Virus record (IMG/VR): IMGVR_UViG_3300046536_000202
Coordinates: 1-42,857 of that record
Source of the DNA: a virus
Strand: one strand, 5' to 3'
Length of the DNA stretch: 42,857 nt
Made by a program: the position numbers and the translations under genes. Shown here piece after piece: positions 35,032 to 41,120 of the stretch. Every line of letters starts with the position of its first letter. Position 1 is the first letter of the stretch. The notes under the pieces are model-generated. The model did not search any database, had not been told where the DNA came from, and was given only the letters and a program-made list of their open reading frames with translations.

Positions 35032-35841
35032 ATGTCCACCGAGACCATCAGCGCAGCACCCGAAGCAGCACCCACGAAAGCACCGGCCAAGACGATCCTG
35101 AACCCGACCGCCGCGTGGCCGTTCCCGACCGCACGCGTCGCGCAGCACTTGTTCGTCACCGTCCCCGAGACCACGCTGCCGAACGGCACGGTGGTCCCGG
35201 CCTTCCAGGTCGGCCAGTACCACTGCGCGAAGGGTGAAGACGGCAAGGTCGCGATCAGCGCCACCGCCAAGCCGTGGCTCGAGATCAACTATGCGGACGC
35301 GCGCCAGGCCTGCACCGACGCCGGCTACGCGCTGCTGACCGAGCTGCAGGCGCTGGCGATCGCGTTCAACGTGGCGCAGCAGGACGCCAACTGGAGCGGC
35401 GGCAAGGTCGGCGAAGGCAAGCTGCTGCAGGGCCTGCACCTGGACCCGGACAACGTGGACGAAGCCTATGCCGGCGACTACGTGTCGCCCGATCCGGCCG
35501 AGCGCCGCACCTTCGTGCTGTCGAACGGCCAGACCATCTTCGACGCGGCCGGCAACGTGTACAGCTGGATCTTCGACGACGTCCAGGGCGACGAGAACGG
35601 GCTGGTGGCGCGCGCCTTCGCCGCCGACTCGCCGTCGATCACCACGGCGCCCTACCCTTCCCTCGAGCGCGGCATGGGCTGGTATCCGAAGGCTGGCAGC
35701 GATTGGTCGGGCTATGCGCTCGTCCGCGGCGGCTGCTGGTGCTCGGACGACCGTGCCGGCGTGTTCCTTCTCGACCACGACTGGCCCGTCGACGCCTACG
35801 ACCACGTGGGTTTCCGCTGCACCAAACCCGTGGGTCTCTGA
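35032..35841 (+). CDS. DGR target protein 1 (C-type lectin / FGE-sulfatase fold)
   Basis: The 269-residue product has a Pro/Ala/Thr-rich N-terminus without signal peptide, then an FGE-sulfatase-like domain: FQVGQYHC, ALLTELQALAIAFNVAQQDANW, VGEGKLLQGLH, LSNGQTIFDAAGNVYSWIFDDVQGDENG. It ends in the variable repeat (about residues 225-263: GYALVRGGCWCSDDRAGVF ... HVGFRCTK). The repeat codes for the exposed ligand-binding part in known C-type lectin DGR targets. ATG 35032 is preceded by GGGAGAA. It is paralogous to target 2 from about residue 38 on. What it binds, and whether it is in the virion, is unknown. Confidence 0.9.
   Translation: MSTETISAAPEAAPTKAPAKTILNPTAAWPFPTARVAQHLFVTVPETTLPNGTVVPAFQVGQYHCAKGEDGKVAISATAKPWLEINYADARQACTDAGYALLTELQALAIAFNVAQQDANWSGGKVGEGKLLQGLHLDPDNVDEAYAGDYVSPDPAERRTFVLSNGQTIFDAAGNVYSWIFDDVQGDENGLVARAFAADSPSITTAPYPSLERGMGWYPKAGSDWSGYALVRGGCWCSDDRAGVFLLDHDWPVDAYDHVGFRCTKPVGL
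35703..35819 (+). repeat. DGR variable repeat VR1
   Basis: 117 bp aligned without gaps to the template repeat at 38341-38457. There are 16 mismatches and all are at template adenines (26 in the template). The bordering bases differ at non-adenine positions, which marks the ends. Confidence 0.95.
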
Positions 35842-36508: not shown

Positions 36509-37402
36509 ATGAAAATCGAACTCACCCAAGAGGATACCTTTACCGCCCGCGCCGGCGCCCACGCCATTCACGGCCTGCGCCGCACCGCACAGTGGGAGGG
36601 CCTGAGCAAGCTGGTCGACCAGTCCGAGCGCTACCTGATCGTCTCCGACGATGACGGCGCCGTGGTGAAAGGCACGCCCGCGCTGCTCAACGTGCTGCAC
36701 CTGACCACCCGCACCGACCTGTTCGTCACGGTGCCCGAAACGACCCTGCCGAATGGCCAAGTCGTGCCGTCGTTCCAGGTCGGCCAGTACCACTGCTGCG
36801 CCAAGGACGACGGGATCGCCATCGACCCGGCGCTGGCGCCGCTGGTGAACGTCAACTACCGCACCGCAAAGGCGCGCTGCGAAGCGGCCGGCTACAAGCT
36901 GATCACCGAACTGCAATGCCTGGCGATCGCCACCAACATCGCGCAGCAGGACATCAACTGGACGAGCGGCGCGGTCGGCGAAGGCAGTCTCTACCAGGGC
37001 ATCCACAAAGAAAATGTCCGCCGCGCGCAACCGGGCAGCTACGAGCCCGAGGATCCGCTCGAGCGCCGCTGGCACCAGCTGTCGAATGGCGAGCGCATCT
37101 ACGACTTCGCCGGCAACGTTTTCACCTGGGTGCACGACGACGTGCAAGGCGATGCCGACGGCCTGGTCAGCGGCACGATCGCGAAGGACTCCCCATCGCT
37201 GACGTGCGCGCCTTTCCCGAGCAGGGAGAAAGGCGTTGGGTATATCCCGGGCGGCCCGCTGCAATGGTCGGGCTATGCGCTCCTCCGCGGCGGCTGCTGG
37301 TGCTCGGACGACCGTGCCGGCGTGTTCCATCTCGGCCACGGCTGGCCCGACGGCGCCGGCGGCAACGTGGGTTTCCGCTGCACCAAACCCGTGGGTCTCT
37401 GA
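36509..37402 (+). CDS. DGR target protein 2 (C-type lectin / FGE-sulfatase fold)
   Basis: The 297-residue product has a distinct N-terminal domain of about 68 residues (KIELTQEDTFTARAGAHAIHGLRR ... LIVSDDDGAVVKGTP) and then the same FGE-like body as target 1: FVTVPETTLPNG, FQVGQYHCC, LITELQCLAIATNIAQQDINW, LSNGERIYDFAGNVFTWVHDDVQGDADG. VR2 covers about residues 253-291. The different N-terminus suggests that the two targets attach the same variable head to different partners. No signal peptide or membrane segment. Confidence 0.9.
   Translation: MKIELTQEDTFTARAGAHAIHGLRRTAQWEGLSKLVDQSERYLIVSDDDGAVVKGTPALLNVLHLTTRTDLFVTVPETTLPNGQVVPSFQVGQYHCCAKDDGIAIDPALAPLVNVNYRTAKARCEAAGYKLITELQCLAIATNIAQQDINWTSGAVGEGSLYQGIHKENVRRAQPGSYEPEDPLERRWHQLSNGERIYDFAGNVFTWVHDDVQGDADGLVSGTIAKDSPSLTCAPFPSREKGVGYIPGGPLQWSGYALLRGGCWCSDDRAGVFHLGHGWPDGAGGNVGFRCTKPVGL
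37264..37380 (+). repeat. DGR variable repeat VR2
   Basis: 117 bp aligned without gaps to the template repeat. There are 17 mismatches, all at template adenines. In the 12 positions changed in both VRs, 10 carry the same new base as VR1. Confidence 0.95.
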
Positions 37403-37414
37403 TCCCTGGTCTCG

Positions 37415-37436
37415 GGTCGCCGCGTAAGCGGTGACC
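37415..37436 (+). other. Hairpin downstream of VR2
   Basis: A 9-bp stem (GGTCGCCGC with GCGGTGACC, one wobble) with loop GTAA lies 12 nt past the target 2 stop codon. The surrounding 55 or so non-coding bases are nearly the same as those after VR1. Confidence 0.65.
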
Positions 37437-37464
37437 TTCCACAACAATAAACAGAACGAGAATC

Positions 37465-38319
37465 ATGCAACAGGCAGCAACACAGCATCCCACCGATGAC
37501 GAGCTGAACAAGTTCGCCATCAGCAAGTTCAAGGGCATCGACGTCGGGCTGGGCCAAGCCGACCCGATGACGGGCATCGCCAAGAAGCTCGAGCAGCAGT
37601 ATCCGAACCACCTGATCCTGATCCAGGCCGGCAAGTTCCTGCACGGCTTCGACCGCACCGCGCACGCGCTCGGCACCCTGAAGGGCTACCAGCTCAAGCT
37701 GATCGGCACCACCGACGAGCCACACCTGCGTGTCGGCTTCCCGGCCGGTAACTTCAAGAGCCGCTTGTGGTCGATGGTCGAGGAGTTCGGCATCCCCTAC
37801 GTGGTGGCGCTGGGCACGCTCGCGCAGGGCCATACCGTCTACGTGTCGGACCAGTCCAGCCAGCAGTCGCCCGTGCTCGCGGCCGTAACGCCGGAGATCG
37901 TCGCCCAGGTGATCGAGGATCTGCGCCAGCGTGGCAACCTCAACAAAGCAGCGGCCAAGCAGGTGCTGGCCAACCCGGACAGCTCGGGCTTCAAGCTGAA
38001 ACAGCAGGCCCAGGCGCTCGACACGCAGCTGCTGCAGGACATCATCAGGATGCCGCGCGACGTGCGCGTAACCTACGGCGAGAACCTGCGTGCATGCATG
38101 GCACGGCTGATGCGCGCCGTGTTCGCCTTCGGCCTGGATGTGAACCGGACCGCCACCCTGCACGCGATCTCCGCCGACGTCGACCTCCTCAAGCACTACC
38201 TGGCACAGGCCCAACGGCTAAGCATGATCAAGTTCGCATTCGAGCACCGAGTGGGCTTAGCCGTTGAGCTTGGGCGGCTGGTCGGCGGGCTGATCCGTTC
38301 CGAAAAGGCCGCATCATGA
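37465..38319 (+). CDS. avd: DGR accessory protein: MutS domain I-like plus Avd-like fusion
   Basis: The 284-residue product has two parts. Residues 35-118 (IAKKLEQQYPNHLILIQAGKF, then GYQLKLIGTTDEPHLRVGFP and FGIPYVVALG) resemble MutS domain I, the mismatch-sensing domain. Where MutS has the F-x-E motif, this protein has F58-L-H60. Residues 183-280 (QLLQDIIRMPRDVRVTYGENL, then KHYLAQAQRLSMIKFAFEH and ELGRLVGGLIRSE) match the four-helix-bundle Avd family, which binds the RT and the template RNA in known DGRs. The gene lies between target 2 and the template repeat, the usual avd place, and its stop overlaps the ATG of the RT frame (ATGA). MutS-like DGR accessory proteins have been reported, as I recall. 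A fusion with Avd I do not recall. Confidence 0.82.
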   Translation: MQQAATQHPTDDELNKFAISKFKGIDVGLGQADPMTGIAKKLEQQYPNHLILIQAGKFLHGFDRTAHALGTLKGYQLKLIGTTDEPHLRVGFPAGNFKSRLWSMVEEFGIPYVVALGTLAQGHTVYVSDQSSQQSPVLAAVTPEIVAQVIEDLRQRGNLNKAAAKQVLANPDSSGFKLKQQAQALDTQLLQDIIRMPRDVRVTYGENLRACMARLMRAVFAFGLDVNRTATLHAISADVDLLKHYLAQAQRLSMIKFAFEHRVGLAVELGRLVGGLIRSEKAAS

Positions 38320-39647
38320 TCAACGAAGGGGGATTTCTGGAAGGTCGAGCAATGCGCTCATCCGCGGCGGCTACTGGTACTCGGACGACAATGCCGGCGT
38401 GTTCAATCTCGACAACGACTGGCCCGACAACGCCAACGACAACGTGGGTTTCCGCTGACCCAAAAATTACATGCCTGGACGCTCAGCCCTGCGCTGGCGG
38501 GAGGTCAATTCTTGGTCGAAATCCTCCTGGGGCATCCCCAAAAGCAGGGCGTCAAGCCACACCGAGAACCGCGCCGGGGCCTACGGGCGCCGGCGCGGGA
38601 CGTGGCAGCGACAGCGCTTTCACTACCCTGACGGGCCTGCCCAACCTGTACGCCTGCTGGCTGAAGGCTAAGCGCAGCAAGTCGCACTGCCCGCGCGTGC
38701 AGCGCTTCGACGCGGACCCGCTGCACTACCTGCTGACGATCCAGCAGCGCCTGCGCGCGCGCCAGTTCACCTTCGGCCCGTACAAGGCGTTCACCGTGCG
38801 CGAGAAGAAGTTCCGCCAGGTGATCGACGCCCCGATGAAGGACCGCGTGGTGCACTGGATGCTGTACCAGTACCTGCTGCCGATCTGGCAGCCCCGCTTT
38901 ATCCACGATACCTACGGCAACCTGCCGGGGCGCGGCACGCACGCGGCCGTCGATCGCCTGGCCGGGTTCTGCCGCGGCGCCAGCGCTCGATGGGCGCTGC
39001 AGCTAGACATCTCGAAGTACTTCTATTCGGTCAGCCATGAACTGCTGAAGGCGCGCGCGCTGCGCTACGTGGGCGACCACGCCCTGCGCCAGCTGATCGT
39101 CGCACTGATCGATTCGTTCCGCACCGATGGCAGCTACGACCACCTGTTCGACGACGAGACACCCTACCGGCGCACCGCGGCCAAGGGCATGCCGATCGGG
39201 AACCTGAGCAGCCAGCTGTTCGCGAACATCTTCCTGGCCGACTTCGATCACTGGGTGAAGGGCGGCCTGCGCGTGCGCCGCTACATCCGCTACGTCGATG
39301 ACCTGGTGGTGATCGGCGAGACGTGCGCCGAGCTGGTGGCGGTGAAAGACGCGATCGTGGCGAAGCTGGCCGCCGACGGCCTGGTGGTCCACCCTCGCAA
39401 GATGCGCATCGCCCCGGTGTCGGCCGGCGTGCCATTCCTCGGGTACGTCGTCTGGTCGAACCACGTATCGGCCGGAGCTTACGTGCGCGGCCGGTACATC
39501 CGGCGCCTGCGCGAGCACGAGGCGGGCGGCTATGACCGCAGCGAGACCTTGCAAGCCTACCGGGCAATCCTTTCGCACACCGGGCCCACCAACACGCGCA
39601 GGGGCGCCGCGCGCAGCCAAACTCGACACACGGAGACCATGCTATGA
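38316..39647 (+). CDS. DGR reverse transcriptase
   Basis: The conserved part (about residues 104-430 of this frame) has the DGR RT pattern: LTGLPNLYACWLKAKRSK at its start, FIHDTYGNLPGRGTHAAV, motif A LQLDISKYFYS with Asp231, IGNLSSQ at 294-300 (the DGR-type variant of the RT motif 4), and YVDD at 326-329. It copies the template RNA into adenine-mutated cDNA. The only ATGs in this frame are at 38316, overlapping the avd stop, and 38352, both before or in the template repeat. Either RT is translated through TR, which stays open in this frame, or a non-ATG start nearer 38620 is used. The first 100 residues look non-conserved. Confidence 0.93.
   Translation: MINEGGFLEGRAMRSSAAATGTRTTMPACSISTTTGPTTPTTTWVSADPKITCLDAQPCAGGRSILGRNPPGASPKAGRQATPRTAPGPTGAGAGRGSDSAFTTLTGLPNLYACWLKAKRSKSHCPRVQRFDADPLHYLLTIQQRLRARQFTFGPYKAFTVREKKFRQVIDAPMKDRVVHWMLYQYLLPIWQPRFIHDTYGNLPGRGTHAAVDRLAGFCRGASARWALQLDISKYFYSVSHELLKARALRYVGDHALRQLIVALIDSFRTDGSYDHLFDDETPYRRTAAKGMPIGNLSSQLFANIFLADFDHWVKGGLRVRRYIRYVDDLVVIGETCAELVAVKDAIVAKLAADGLVVHPRKMRIAPVSAGVPFLGYVVWSNHVSAGAYVRGRYIRRLREHEAGGYDRSETLQAYRAILSHTGPTNTRRGAARSQTRHTETML
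38341..38457 (+). repeat. DGR template repeat (TR)
   Basis: 117 bp with 26 adenines, many in AAC/AAT codons of the VR reading frame (N at each diversified site). In that frame it ends with a TGA stop just past the repeat, and where the VRs have Cys. Mismatches to both VRs occur only at its adenines. It lies between the avd-like gene and the conserved RT region. The 160 bp or so that follow, before the conserved RT part, may be the structured RNA spacer. Confidence 0.96.
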
Positions 39648-39796
39648 ACTTCTGGACGATTTGCCTGATCTTCTGCCGTATGTGGACCACGGCACCGACA
39701 TGCAGCGGCAGCTGCAACCAGGGCCGCCAGCCGTGCGACTGTAGGAACACTGCAAGCCCGTGCACATCTGGACGGACGGGAGAAACGGAACAATGA
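39644..39796 (+). CDS. 50-residue Cys-rich peptide coupled to RT
   Basis: A short frame has ATGA overlaps at both ends: its ATG with the RT stop and its stop with the next ATG. It encodes a peptide with seven Cys (for example FWTICLIFC, APTCSGSC, PCDC). Double coupling is the main support. No family recognised. It might bind metal or be a coupling leader. Confidence 0.5.
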   Translation: MNFWTICLIFCRMWTTAPTCSGSCNQGRQPCDCRNTASPCTSGRTGETEQ

Positions 39797-40023
39797 TTTA
39801 CCTTTCCGCCCAAGAACTCGCGGACTTGATCGGGTGTGCCCCGAACAGCTTCGCGTGTATGCGCCGCTACCTCACACGCAACAACTGGCCGTTCGCGCCG
39901 ACCCTGCGTGGCTTCCCTCACGTCAGTCGAGCATATTATGATGCCAGGATGAGCGGCGCGACCAGCGCACCCGCGCAGACGCAGCCCGAAGAAGAACCCG
40001 ATTTCAGCATGTTCCAGAAATGA
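39793..40023 (+). CDS. DUF4224-type protein next to integrase
   Basis: The 76-residue product begins IYLSAQELADLIGCAPNSFACMRRYLTRNNWPFAPTLRGFPHVSRAYYDA. This resembles DUF4224, a small domain encoded just before many phage integrases, possibly an excision or integration cofactor. It overlaps the integrase gene (ATGA). Confidence 0.72.
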   Translation: MIYLSAQELADLIGCAPNSFACMRRYLTRNNWPFAPTLRGFPHVSRAYYDARMSGATSAPAQTQPEEEPDFSMFQK

Positions 40024-41120
40024 GCGGACGACGTAAAGCCCCAGACGGCATGCCGTTTCGCCTCTATGAGCGCATCGGCAAATTCAAGGTCAGCTATACC
40101 TACAAGCTGCCGGACGGGACGTGCGCATTCTGGCTGTCGGCGCCGGCCAGCGACAAGGAAGGGGTGGCCCAGATCAAGGCCGAGGCCATCCAGCGCGCCA
40201 ACGAACTGAACGGCGTGGTGCCGGAGGCGAGCGGGGAAACCGAAGAACTGTTCCGTGAATACTTCGCCTGGCAGCGCCGCCTGCCCAGGGAGAGCGAGGA
40301 ACGGAAAGCCGACAACACGCTCAAGGAAAACGAACGCGAGCAGAAGCCGCTCCTGCGCAGCTTCGGCAAGGTCAAGCCGGAGAAGATCAAGCCCGTGCAC
40401 ATCTACCGCTACCTGGACGGGCGCGCGGCCGAAGGCGCGCCGGCCAAGGCGAACAAGGAGGTGGCGCTGCTATCAGCGGTATTCGAATTCGGGCGCCGGC
40501 GCGGCAGGATCGAGACGAATCCCTGCCGCGGCATCAAGTACAACAAGACCAGGCCGAAGACCAGTTATGTGGACGCCGCAGCGCGCGGCCTGGTAATGCG
40601 CGTGGCGCGCGAGCGCGGCGGGATGTACCTGGTGGTGGCGCTCTGCCTGCGCGTGGCGTACCTGACTGTCAGCCGCCCGGACGAGACGCGTTCGATGATG
40701 CGGCAGGCGGTCGAGTCAGATGGCGTGCGGGTCCCGGTGGGCAAGCGCAAGAAGGGCCAAGCGCAGAAGTACAAGCTAATCGAGTGGTCGCCGGACCTGC
40801 GCGCCGCGATCGACGAGGCGCTGTCGCTGCAGCGCACCGCGAGCATGTGCGTGTTCGGCAATAGCGACGGCCAGCCGTACACCATCAGCGGATTCAATAC
40901 CACCCTGCGCCGGCTGATGGCGCACTGCGAGAAGAAGGCAGCAGAGGAAGGCATCGCGTTCACCAGGTTCACGCTGGCCGACATGCGCCCGGCGGCGGTG
41001 ACCGACCGGGTGGACGACGGCGACGAGCACATCACCAATGCCACTGGCCACAACAGCGAGCGCATGGTCAAGCAGGTCTATGACCGCCGCAAGGTCAAGA
41101 AGGCGCGCGCTACGGAATAG
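40020..41120 (+). CDS. int: Phage integrase (tyrosine recombinase)
   Basis: The 366-residue product has an N-terminal arm-binding-like part, a core-binding helical domain (about 95-165) and a catalytic domain with CLRVAYLTVSRPDETRSM (Arg I), VGKRKKGQAQKYKL (Lys), FTLADMRPAAVTD (Arg II; the usual His or Lys before the Asp is Ala), ATGHNSERMVKQVYDRR (His and Tyr). It lies 1.6 kb from attR and is the last gene of the DGR operon. It is the likely enzyme for tRNA-His integration. Confidence 0.92.
   Translation: MSGRRKAPDGMPFRLYERIGKFKVSYTYKLPDGTCAFWLSAPASDKEGVAQIKAEAIQRANELNGVVPEASGETEELFREYFAWQRRLPRESEERKADNTLKENEREQKPLLRSFGKVKPEKIKPVHIYRYLDGRAAEGAPAKANKEVALLSAVFEFGRRRGRIETNPCRGIKYNKTRPKTSYVDAAARGLVMRVARERGGMYLVVALCLRVAYLTVSRPDETRSMMRQAVESDGVRVPVGKRKKGQAQKYKLIEWSPDLRAAIDEALSLQRTASMCVFGNSDGQPYTISGFNTTLRRLMAHCEKKAAEEGIAFTRFTLADMRPAAVTDRVDDGDEHITNATGHNSERMVKQVYDRRKVKKARATE

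What the first reader, a model, noticed from the sequence alone, without database searches (positions are those of the whole stretch)
37465..38319. DGR accessory protein appears to fuse a MutS domain I-like part to an Avd-like bundle
Residues 35-118 look like the MutS mismatch-sensing domain with the F-x-E motif changed to F-L-H, and residues 183-280 look like Avd. Avd and MutS-like proteins have been described as separate DGR accessory types, as I recall. One chain with both suggests that mismatch sensing or nucleic acid kinking is tied to mutagenic cDNA synthesis, or that the fold is reused to hold template RNA.
Basis: partly seen in the sequence, partly recalled or inferred. Interest (0 to 1): 0.85.

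Follow-up and report, generated by a model that had tools for sequence, protein, structure and literature searches.

The report
MutS-domain-fused Avd in phage DGR
A phage gene-diversifying element makes its helper protein with an extra part shaped like the mismatch-sensing piece of the DNA repair protein MutS, but with the key sensing residue changed, so it may grip the copying RNA or DNA rather than find mismatches.

Summary
ORF 37465-38319 (284 aa) is a DGR accessory protein with a C-terminal Avd bundle (residues ~172-283) and an N-terminal domain with the fold of MutS domain I (~28-130). The N-domain model alone matches only MutS-family chains at Z above 9 (ranks 1-43, Z 9.1-13.2; next Z 4.6). 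Sequence evidence for MutS I is weak in this protein (13.8 bits, below Pfam's cut-off) but recurs in 20 of 42 relatives (best 8.6e-5). The fusion marks one clade of betaproteobacterial phage DGRs: 36 of 39 related-RT loci carry both halves in one ORF and the other three are cut by contig ends. None of 79 more distant DGR loci has the N domain. MutS-I accessory proteins ("MSL") are already in print; I found no statement that they contain Avd, but the defining paper is not held. The MutS Phe is kept as Phe/Trp in 49 of 49, the Glu is His/Gln in 49 of 49, and the loop charge goes from about -4 to +1. That speaks against mismatch sensing and for a non-selective nucleic-acid wedge (inferred). Unexpectedly, the RT reading frame in this clade runs open from the accessory stop (ATGA) through TR and a covarying spacer RNA.

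The parts
35032..35841 (+). DGR target gene 1 (269 aa), VR1 at 35710-35818
   Evidence: 14 of 14 TR-VR1 mismatches lie at TR adenines over 109 nt; repeat family D1
36509..37402 (+). DGR target gene 2 (297 aa), VR2 at 37271-37379, FGE-sulfatase-like domain
   Evidence: 16 of 16 TR-VR2 mismatches at TR adenines; Pfam FGE-sulfatase E 3.8e-6
37415..37436 (.). DNA hairpin (9-bp stem, 4-nt loop) downstream of VR2, in the place of the BPP-1 target hairpin/cruciform
   Evidence: -10.3 kcal/mol, z -2.9, 2 of 200 shuffles as good; a counterpart after VR1 is not above chance (29 of 200)
37465..38319 (+). MutS-I::Avd accessory protein (284 aa)
37546..37854 (+). MutS domain I-like domain, residues 28-130
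   Evidence: fold of the domain alone: only MutS-family chains above Z 9; Pfam MutS_I in 20 of 42 members
37630..37662 (+). wedge loop G56-A66 (F-x-E motif changed to F58-L59-H60)
   Evidence: F/W 49 of 49, H/Q 49 of 49; loop net charge 0 to +2 versus -3 to -4 in 30 MutS
37891..37971 (+). linker helix, residues 143-169, low confidence at 162-171
   Evidence: DSSP and pLDDT of the model
37978..38313 (+). Avd helical bundle, residues 172-283
   Evidence: Z 14.2-14.5 to 4dwl and 8ub7/8ub8 Avd chains; bAvd 42 of 42
38316..38319 (+). ATGA: accessory stop overlapping a start codon in the RT frame
   Evidence: 52 of 52 distinct relatives, 1 of 52 Avd-only control DGRs
38348..38456 (+). template repeat (TR), 24 adenines in 109 nt
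38447..38612 (+). 3' end of TR plus structured spacer RNA
   Evidence: 40 pairs, 22 with changes on both sides in 25 sequences; 0 of 500 shuffles reach any measure
38316..39647 (+). RT open frame (443 codons); conserved RT part begins near 38628
   Evidence: RVT_1 E 2.2e-21; PHROG RT E 1.9e-94; frame open through TR and spacer
39760..40023 (+). excisionase-like gene beside the DGR
   Evidence: PHROG excisionase E 3.6e-12
40020..41120 (+). phage integrase beside the DGR
   Evidence: PHROG integrase E 1.2e-29

Best explanation
It is the accessory subunit of an apparently active phage DGR, made of an ordinary Avd bundle with a MutS domain I-like arm on its N terminus. SHOWN here: the two folds (as predicted models), the fusion as the fixed state of one RT clade, the complete cassette around it, and the motif change. 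INFERRED from known Avd biology: the Avd half assembles with the RT on the spacer RNA, so several arms (five, if it is a pentamer like BPP-1 Avd, which I recall) surround the template. PROPOSED: the arm uses its kept aromatic (F58) and its now basic loop (K57, H60, R64) to clamp or kink nucleic acid in the complex, that is TR RNA, spacer helices or the RNA-cDNA hybrid, without choosing mismatches, since the Glu that gives MutS its discrimination is gone. It would thus be a processivity or template-holding device, not a mismatch sensor.
For: N-domain fold. Avd fold and profile. One ORF with both halves in 36 of 39 RT-clade loci, the other three cut by contig ends, and in 162 of 168 N-domain ORFs held, the other six from two contig ends and one deletion. 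Aromatic wedge kept 49 of 49, Glu lost 49 of 49. Loop charge 0 to +2 in 49 relatives against -3 to -4 in 30 MutS; median domain pI 9.4 against 6.9. Active DGR signature: all 14 and all 16 mismatches at adenines, A-biased repeats in 59 of 60 relatives' loci. Covarying spacer RNA, the element that in BPP-1 recruits the RT-Avd complex (PMC12875486, passages). Glu38Gln abolishes discrimination in MutS (PMC3848065, passages).
Against: No binding of any kind was tested. Sequence similarity to MutS is thin: this protein misses Pfam's cut-off, a profile of 30 Pseudomonadota MutS finds nothing in loci L001-L058, profile-profile alignment is reached by 4 of 300 column-shuffled controls, and the best PDB sequence match of the N-domain profile is an unrelated SIGIRR chain (E 0.022) ahead of Taq MutS (E 1.2). 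A shared fold does not show shared binding. The full-length model has pTM 0.48, so the placement of the arm relative to the bundle is unknown.
Confidence: 0.42

Rival explanations
1. Heteroduplex shield: the arm binds the mismatches that form when mutated cDNA pairs with the VR and keeps the host MutS off them, so that the adenine changes survive.
For: MutS-I fold with the stacking aromatic kept; no ATPase or other MutS domain in the chain, as expected of a binder that cannot signal repair; authors of PMC12875486 deleted mutS to help preserve DGR substitutions (passages).
Against: Glu replaced in 49 of 49, by Gln in three, a change reported to abolish discrimination in MutS. Most DGRs do without the arm (0 of 79 more distant loci).
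Confidence: 0.18
2. Target-site factor: the arm binds the target DNA, such as the hairpin/cruciform downstream of VR or IMH, and brings the RT-cDNA complex there.
For: A hairpin lies about 35 nt downstream of VR2; the BPP-1 hairpin is important for homing and its partner is unknown (PMC3240598, passages); MutS-type proteins bind bent DNA (recalled).
Against: BPP-1 has such a hairpin and a plain Avd; the hairpin after VR1 is not better than chance by energy.
Confidence: 0.2
3. Structural or protein-docking arm: the fold is reused to hold RT, for example its N-terminal region, and has lost nucleic-acid binding.
For: Much of the conserved set (H49, L69, L72, K73, Y75, R100, L101, W102, Y112) lies outside the MutS-type loop and could be core or protein interface; arm and RT clade go strictly together.
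Against: Invariant aromatic at the tip position and the acidic-to-basic switch of the same loop suggest contact with nucleic acid.
Confidence: 0.15
4. The N-terminal similarity to MutS is convergence of a small alpha/beta fold, not common descent.
For: Weak sequence statistics.
Against: 43 MutS-family rows at Z 9.1-13.2 before an unrelated best of 4.6; Pfam MutS_I in 20 of 42 members and no other family besides Avd in more than 8; co-linear loop G-x-F, with G-F-P matching G-V-P.
Confidence: 0.05

Closest known systems
MSL (MutS-like) DGR accessory type, cited in PMC10053308 to its reference 12 (Wu et al. by my recall; not held, not read)
   Same: Pfam PF01624 (MutS domain I) protein in a DGR cassette
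   Different: Nothing I could read says that MSL proteins contain an Avd half; whether the published MSL set is this very family could not be checked. I think it likely.
Avd of Bordetella phage BPP-1 (PDB 4dwl; RNP entries 8ub7, 8ub8)
   Same: C-terminal bundle: 107-110 aligned residues, rmsd 1.8-1.9, Z 14.2-14.5; gene order accessory, TR, RT
   Different: BPP-1 Avd has no N-terminal MutS-I domain; here the RT frame runs through TR
MutS domain I (mismatch-binding domain; Taq MutS 1nne, E. coli MutS 1e3m)
   Same: Fold, the G-x-F tip and its aromatic
   Different: Glu of F-x-E replaced by His/Gln, loop basic instead of acidic, no connector, core, clamp or ATPase domain
HRDC DGR accessory protein (Treponema denticola; PMC4891356, passages)
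   Same: Another nucleic-acid-binding fold in the accessory slot of a DGR
   Different: Different fold; not fused here; lies between TR and RT there

Membership tests
Avd family | Avd sequence profile | tested here: met
   bAvd E 9.3e-7, PHROG Avd E 7.5e-9, NCBIfam Avd E 2.5e-8, below the curated cut-offs where given; bAvd in 42 of 42 members; hhalign with 52 Avd ORFs from other DGRs, probability 98.5
Avd family | Avd helical-bundle fold | tested here: met
   Z 14.2-14.5, rmsd 1.8-1.9 to solved Avd; only a little above the 13 or so that unrelated bundles can reach
Avd family | gene beside DGR TR and RT | tested here: met
Avd family | pentamer, RT binding, needed for cDNA synthesis | not testable with these tools
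   needs experiment
MutS family (mismatch repair protein) | domain I fold | tested here: met
MutS family (mismatch repair protein) | F-x-E mismatch motif | tested here: not met
   Glu replaced by His or Gln in 49 of 49
MutS family (mismatch repair protein) | core, clamp and ATPase domains | tested here: not met
   284 aa filled by MutS I and Avd; no other MutS Pfam domain
MutS family (mismatch repair protein) | mismatch binding | not testable with these tools
   needs experiment
MSL-type DGR accessory protein | MutS_I domain in a DGR accessory gene | tested here: met
   definition taken from PMC10053308
MSL-type DGR accessory protein | homology to the published MSL sequences | not testable with these tools
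   defining paper not held
DGR | RT of the DGR type | tested here: met
   PHROG RT E 1.9e-94; motifs IGxxxSQ and YVDD seen in the alignment (that the first marks DGR RTs is recalled)
DGR | TR/VR pair with adenine-directed mismatches | tested here: met
   14 of 14 and 16 of 16

The most novel reading that the evidence does not exclude
This clade is a distinct DGR design with two linked novelties: an Avd that carries base-wedging arms freed from mismatch selection, and a template RNA nested inside the RT reading frame, so that each transcript must be either translated into RT (by re-initiation at the ATGA) or held by the MutS-I::Avd-RT complex and copied. The arms would then help the complex win that competition by clamping TR and spacer RNA.
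Probability: 0.25. Interest if true: 0.82.

Novelty: new variant of a known kind. Interest (0 to 1): 0.6.

Why it matters
How DGR accessory proteins help a weak RT copy its RNA and deliver mutated cDNA is still open. A natural Avd with a MutS domain I arm, fixed throughout one clade and with the discriminating residue swapped, gives a clean test: remove the arm and see which step fails. It also suggests that two published accessory types (Avd and MSL) overlap. The open RT frame through the template repeat, if real at the protein level, would be an unusual case of one RNA serving as template, structured scaffold and coding sequence.

Tried and rejected
Mismatch sensing as the arm's function: lowered, because Glu is replaced in 49 of 49.

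Stand-alone MutS-I accessory genes: none found. Two weak family-level hits (E 3e-5 and 2e-4, with in-frame stops) were set aside; for one I read 801 bases and saw nothing DGR-like in them, the other was not inspected.

Sequence-only proof of MutS homology: hmmsearch with a 30-member Pseudomonadota MutS profile found nothing, hhalign was marginal, PDB profile searches were not significant. SIGIRR (E 0.022) judged a chance match, since the fold search of the domain returns MutS.

An effect of the arm on mutation pattern: TR adenines substituted 59% in relatives with the arm and 50% in controls, not used, because loci are related and flanks differ.

Rfam: nothing above chance in 37300-39000. No covariance model was built.

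Is the fusion in print? Searches (open-licence PubMed Central only) gave one DGR paper naming MSL (PMC10053308) and none stating a MutS-Avd fusion. For TR inside an RT frame: one search gave nothing specific; PMC8144416 (passages) says TR is intergenic 'in most cases'.

Rows dropped: I left out four loci with an insertion between spacer and RT (L015, L035, L045, L050), four cut or deleted ones (L048, L056-L058) and the window's own copy L021; one search includes L035 and L045 as failures.

Full report
WHAT IS THERE. The window is an unnamed 42,857-base virus record with phage tail, head, connector, terminase, endolysin and replication genes on the minus strand. On the plus strand lies a complete DGR: two paralogous targets with VRs (35032-35841 and 36509-37402), the accessory gene (37465-38319), TR (38348-38456), a structured spacer and an RT, followed by an excisionase-like gene and an integrase. 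Over 109 nt, all 14 TR-VR1 and all 16 TR-VR2 mismatches sit at TR adenines, the mark of adenine-directed mutagenesis.

THE AVD HALF. Three libraries give Avd for residues 174-283 (E 9.3e-7, 7.5e-9, 2.5e-8), and bAvd matches all 42 family members scanned. The only tblastn match in the phage collection is a gene beside a DGR RT, and the only one in the plasmid collection is an annotated avd. The full-length model (pLDDT 74.7, pTM 0.48) superposes residues 172-284 on solved Avd with Z 14.2-14.5 and rmsd 1.8-1.9.

THE MUTS-I HALF. In sequence the match is weak: 13.8 bits against a cut-off of 20.6, and 20 of 42 members at E<=1 with best 8.6e-5. Against it, a profile of 30 Pseudomonadota MutS finds nothing in the relatives' loci L001-L058, and hhalign with that profile is equalled by 4 of 300 column-shuffled controls. 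The fold is clear. Residues 25-135 alone give a confident model (pLDDT 88, pTM 0.81) whose 50 listed Foldseek matches are all MutS-family (best E 1.5e-5). By VIA-align, ranks 1-43 are MutS-family at Z 9.1-13.2 and the next, unrelated, row is Z 4.6.

THE MOTIF. The loop G-x-F-x-E of MutS aligns with G56-K57-F58-L59-H60. In 49 relatives the aromatic is Phe (44) or Trp (5), and the Glu position is His (46) or Gln (3). The 11-residue loop has a net charge of 0, +1 or +2 in the 49 relatives, and of -3 or -4 in 30 MutS, whose F and E were fixed by the way I picked them. In E. coli MutS the Phe stacks on a mismatched base, and Glu38Gln abolishes discrimination (PMC3848065, passages). The arm therefore looks like a wedge without a mismatch sensor. 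This is inference.

HOW WIDESPREAD. A scan with an RT alignment kept the best 80 loci. Thirty-nine have RTs 63% or more identical to this one, then identity falls to 38% or less. Of the 39, 36 have both halves in one ORF and three are cut by contig ends (L108, L119, L121). Of 79 more distant DGR loci, none has the N domain and 55 show an Avd. A scan with the N domain alone gave 72 contigs. Among all 168 N-domain ORFs then held (many contigs counted more than once), 162 also carry Avd; the other six come from two contig ends and one deletion. In 399 genomes of the host order, the only strong full-length match is in G002 itself, the Duganella genome used as centre; two further matches cover mainly the Avd part. 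In 392 genomes of the family, five have the N domain strongly, two of them plus G002 being genomes already known to carry it. Named hosts are Duganella, Pseudoduganella and a betaproteobacterial MAG. So the fusion is fixed in one RT clade and, in these collections, confined to it.

THE RNA. Across 25 relatives the end of TR and the spacer fold into a common structure of 40 pairs, 22 with changes on both sides, with 96.5% of cells paired against 87.6% in shuffles and 34-45% when slid; none of 500 shuffles reaches any measure. In BPP-1 the spacer folds and recruits the RT-Avd complex (PMC12875486, passages).

AN UNEXPECTED FRAME. In 52 of 52 evaluable distinct relatives the accessory stop codon overlaps an ATG (ATGA), and in 50 of 52 the frame of that ATG, which is the RT frame, is open from there through TR and spacer to the RT. 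Composition predicts 2.0, the other two frames are open in 1 and 10, and Avd-only control DGRs show 7 of 52 open and 1 of 52 ATGA. The two failures have extra sequence between the accessory gene and RT. Lengths vary in steps of three (50 of 50, after leaving out four loci with insertions and four cut or deleted ones). Shuffling columns would put a stop into 11-26 of 50 sequences, and none has one. In 22 of 50, the window among them, no ATG, GTG or TTG lies in frame between TR and the RT core. Codon-position variability in the spacer is nearly flat (0.69, 0.74, 0.82 bits, against 0.65, 0.51, 1.25 in the RT core), so the peptide itself seems little constrained. RT thus appears to be translated through its own template. 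Relatedness of the sequences weakens the shuffle test, and no protein evidence exists.

HOW IT MAY WORK. Best supported (0.42): Avd does its usual job with RT and spacer RNA, and the MutS-I arms clamp or kink TR RNA or the RNA-cDNA hybrid without selecting mismatches. Rivals: target-DNA factor (0.20), shield against host MutS (0.18), docking arm (0.15), chance fold likeness (0.05).

NOVELTY. MutS-I accessory proteins of DGRs (MSL) are in print (PMC10053308, first part of Results read). No open-licence paper I found states that one chain holds MutS-I and Avd. The paper that defined MSL was not available, so the fusion may already be described there. I file it as a new variant of a known kind.

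Noticed in passing
38316-38628 in the window; 52 distinct relatives: The RT frame is open from the accessory stop (ATGA) through TR and spacer in 50 of 52 relatives; TR looks nested in the RT coding sequence.
   Followed up: yes
38447-38612: The end of TR pairs with the spacer in a strongly covarying RNA structure of seven helices.
   Followed up: yes
L058 4953-5771: A deletion joins accessory residue about 71 to late RT sequence: a decayed DGR in a phage contig.
   Followed up: partly
L270 273-2543: An accessory gene with an altered C-terminal end is followed by a RadC-like gene (by its motif, recalled), another short gene and only a 47-residue RT remnant.
   Followed up: partly
L041 and L183 (contig IMGVR_UViG_3300050139_000358): One 71-kb phage contig has a MutS-I::Avd DGR at one end and an ordinary Avd DGR at the other.
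   Followed up: no
L060 3965-7364: Ideonella dechloratans plasmid with tandem avd, RT, avd, RT.
   Followed up: no
L038 10148-10795: A second RT-like sequence (31% identity) on the minus strand near a MutS-I::Avd DGR.
   Followed up: no
L117, L275: In the diverged subgroup the accessory-to-RT interval is 545-554 nt and still open in the RT frame at 48-49% GC.
   Followed up: partly
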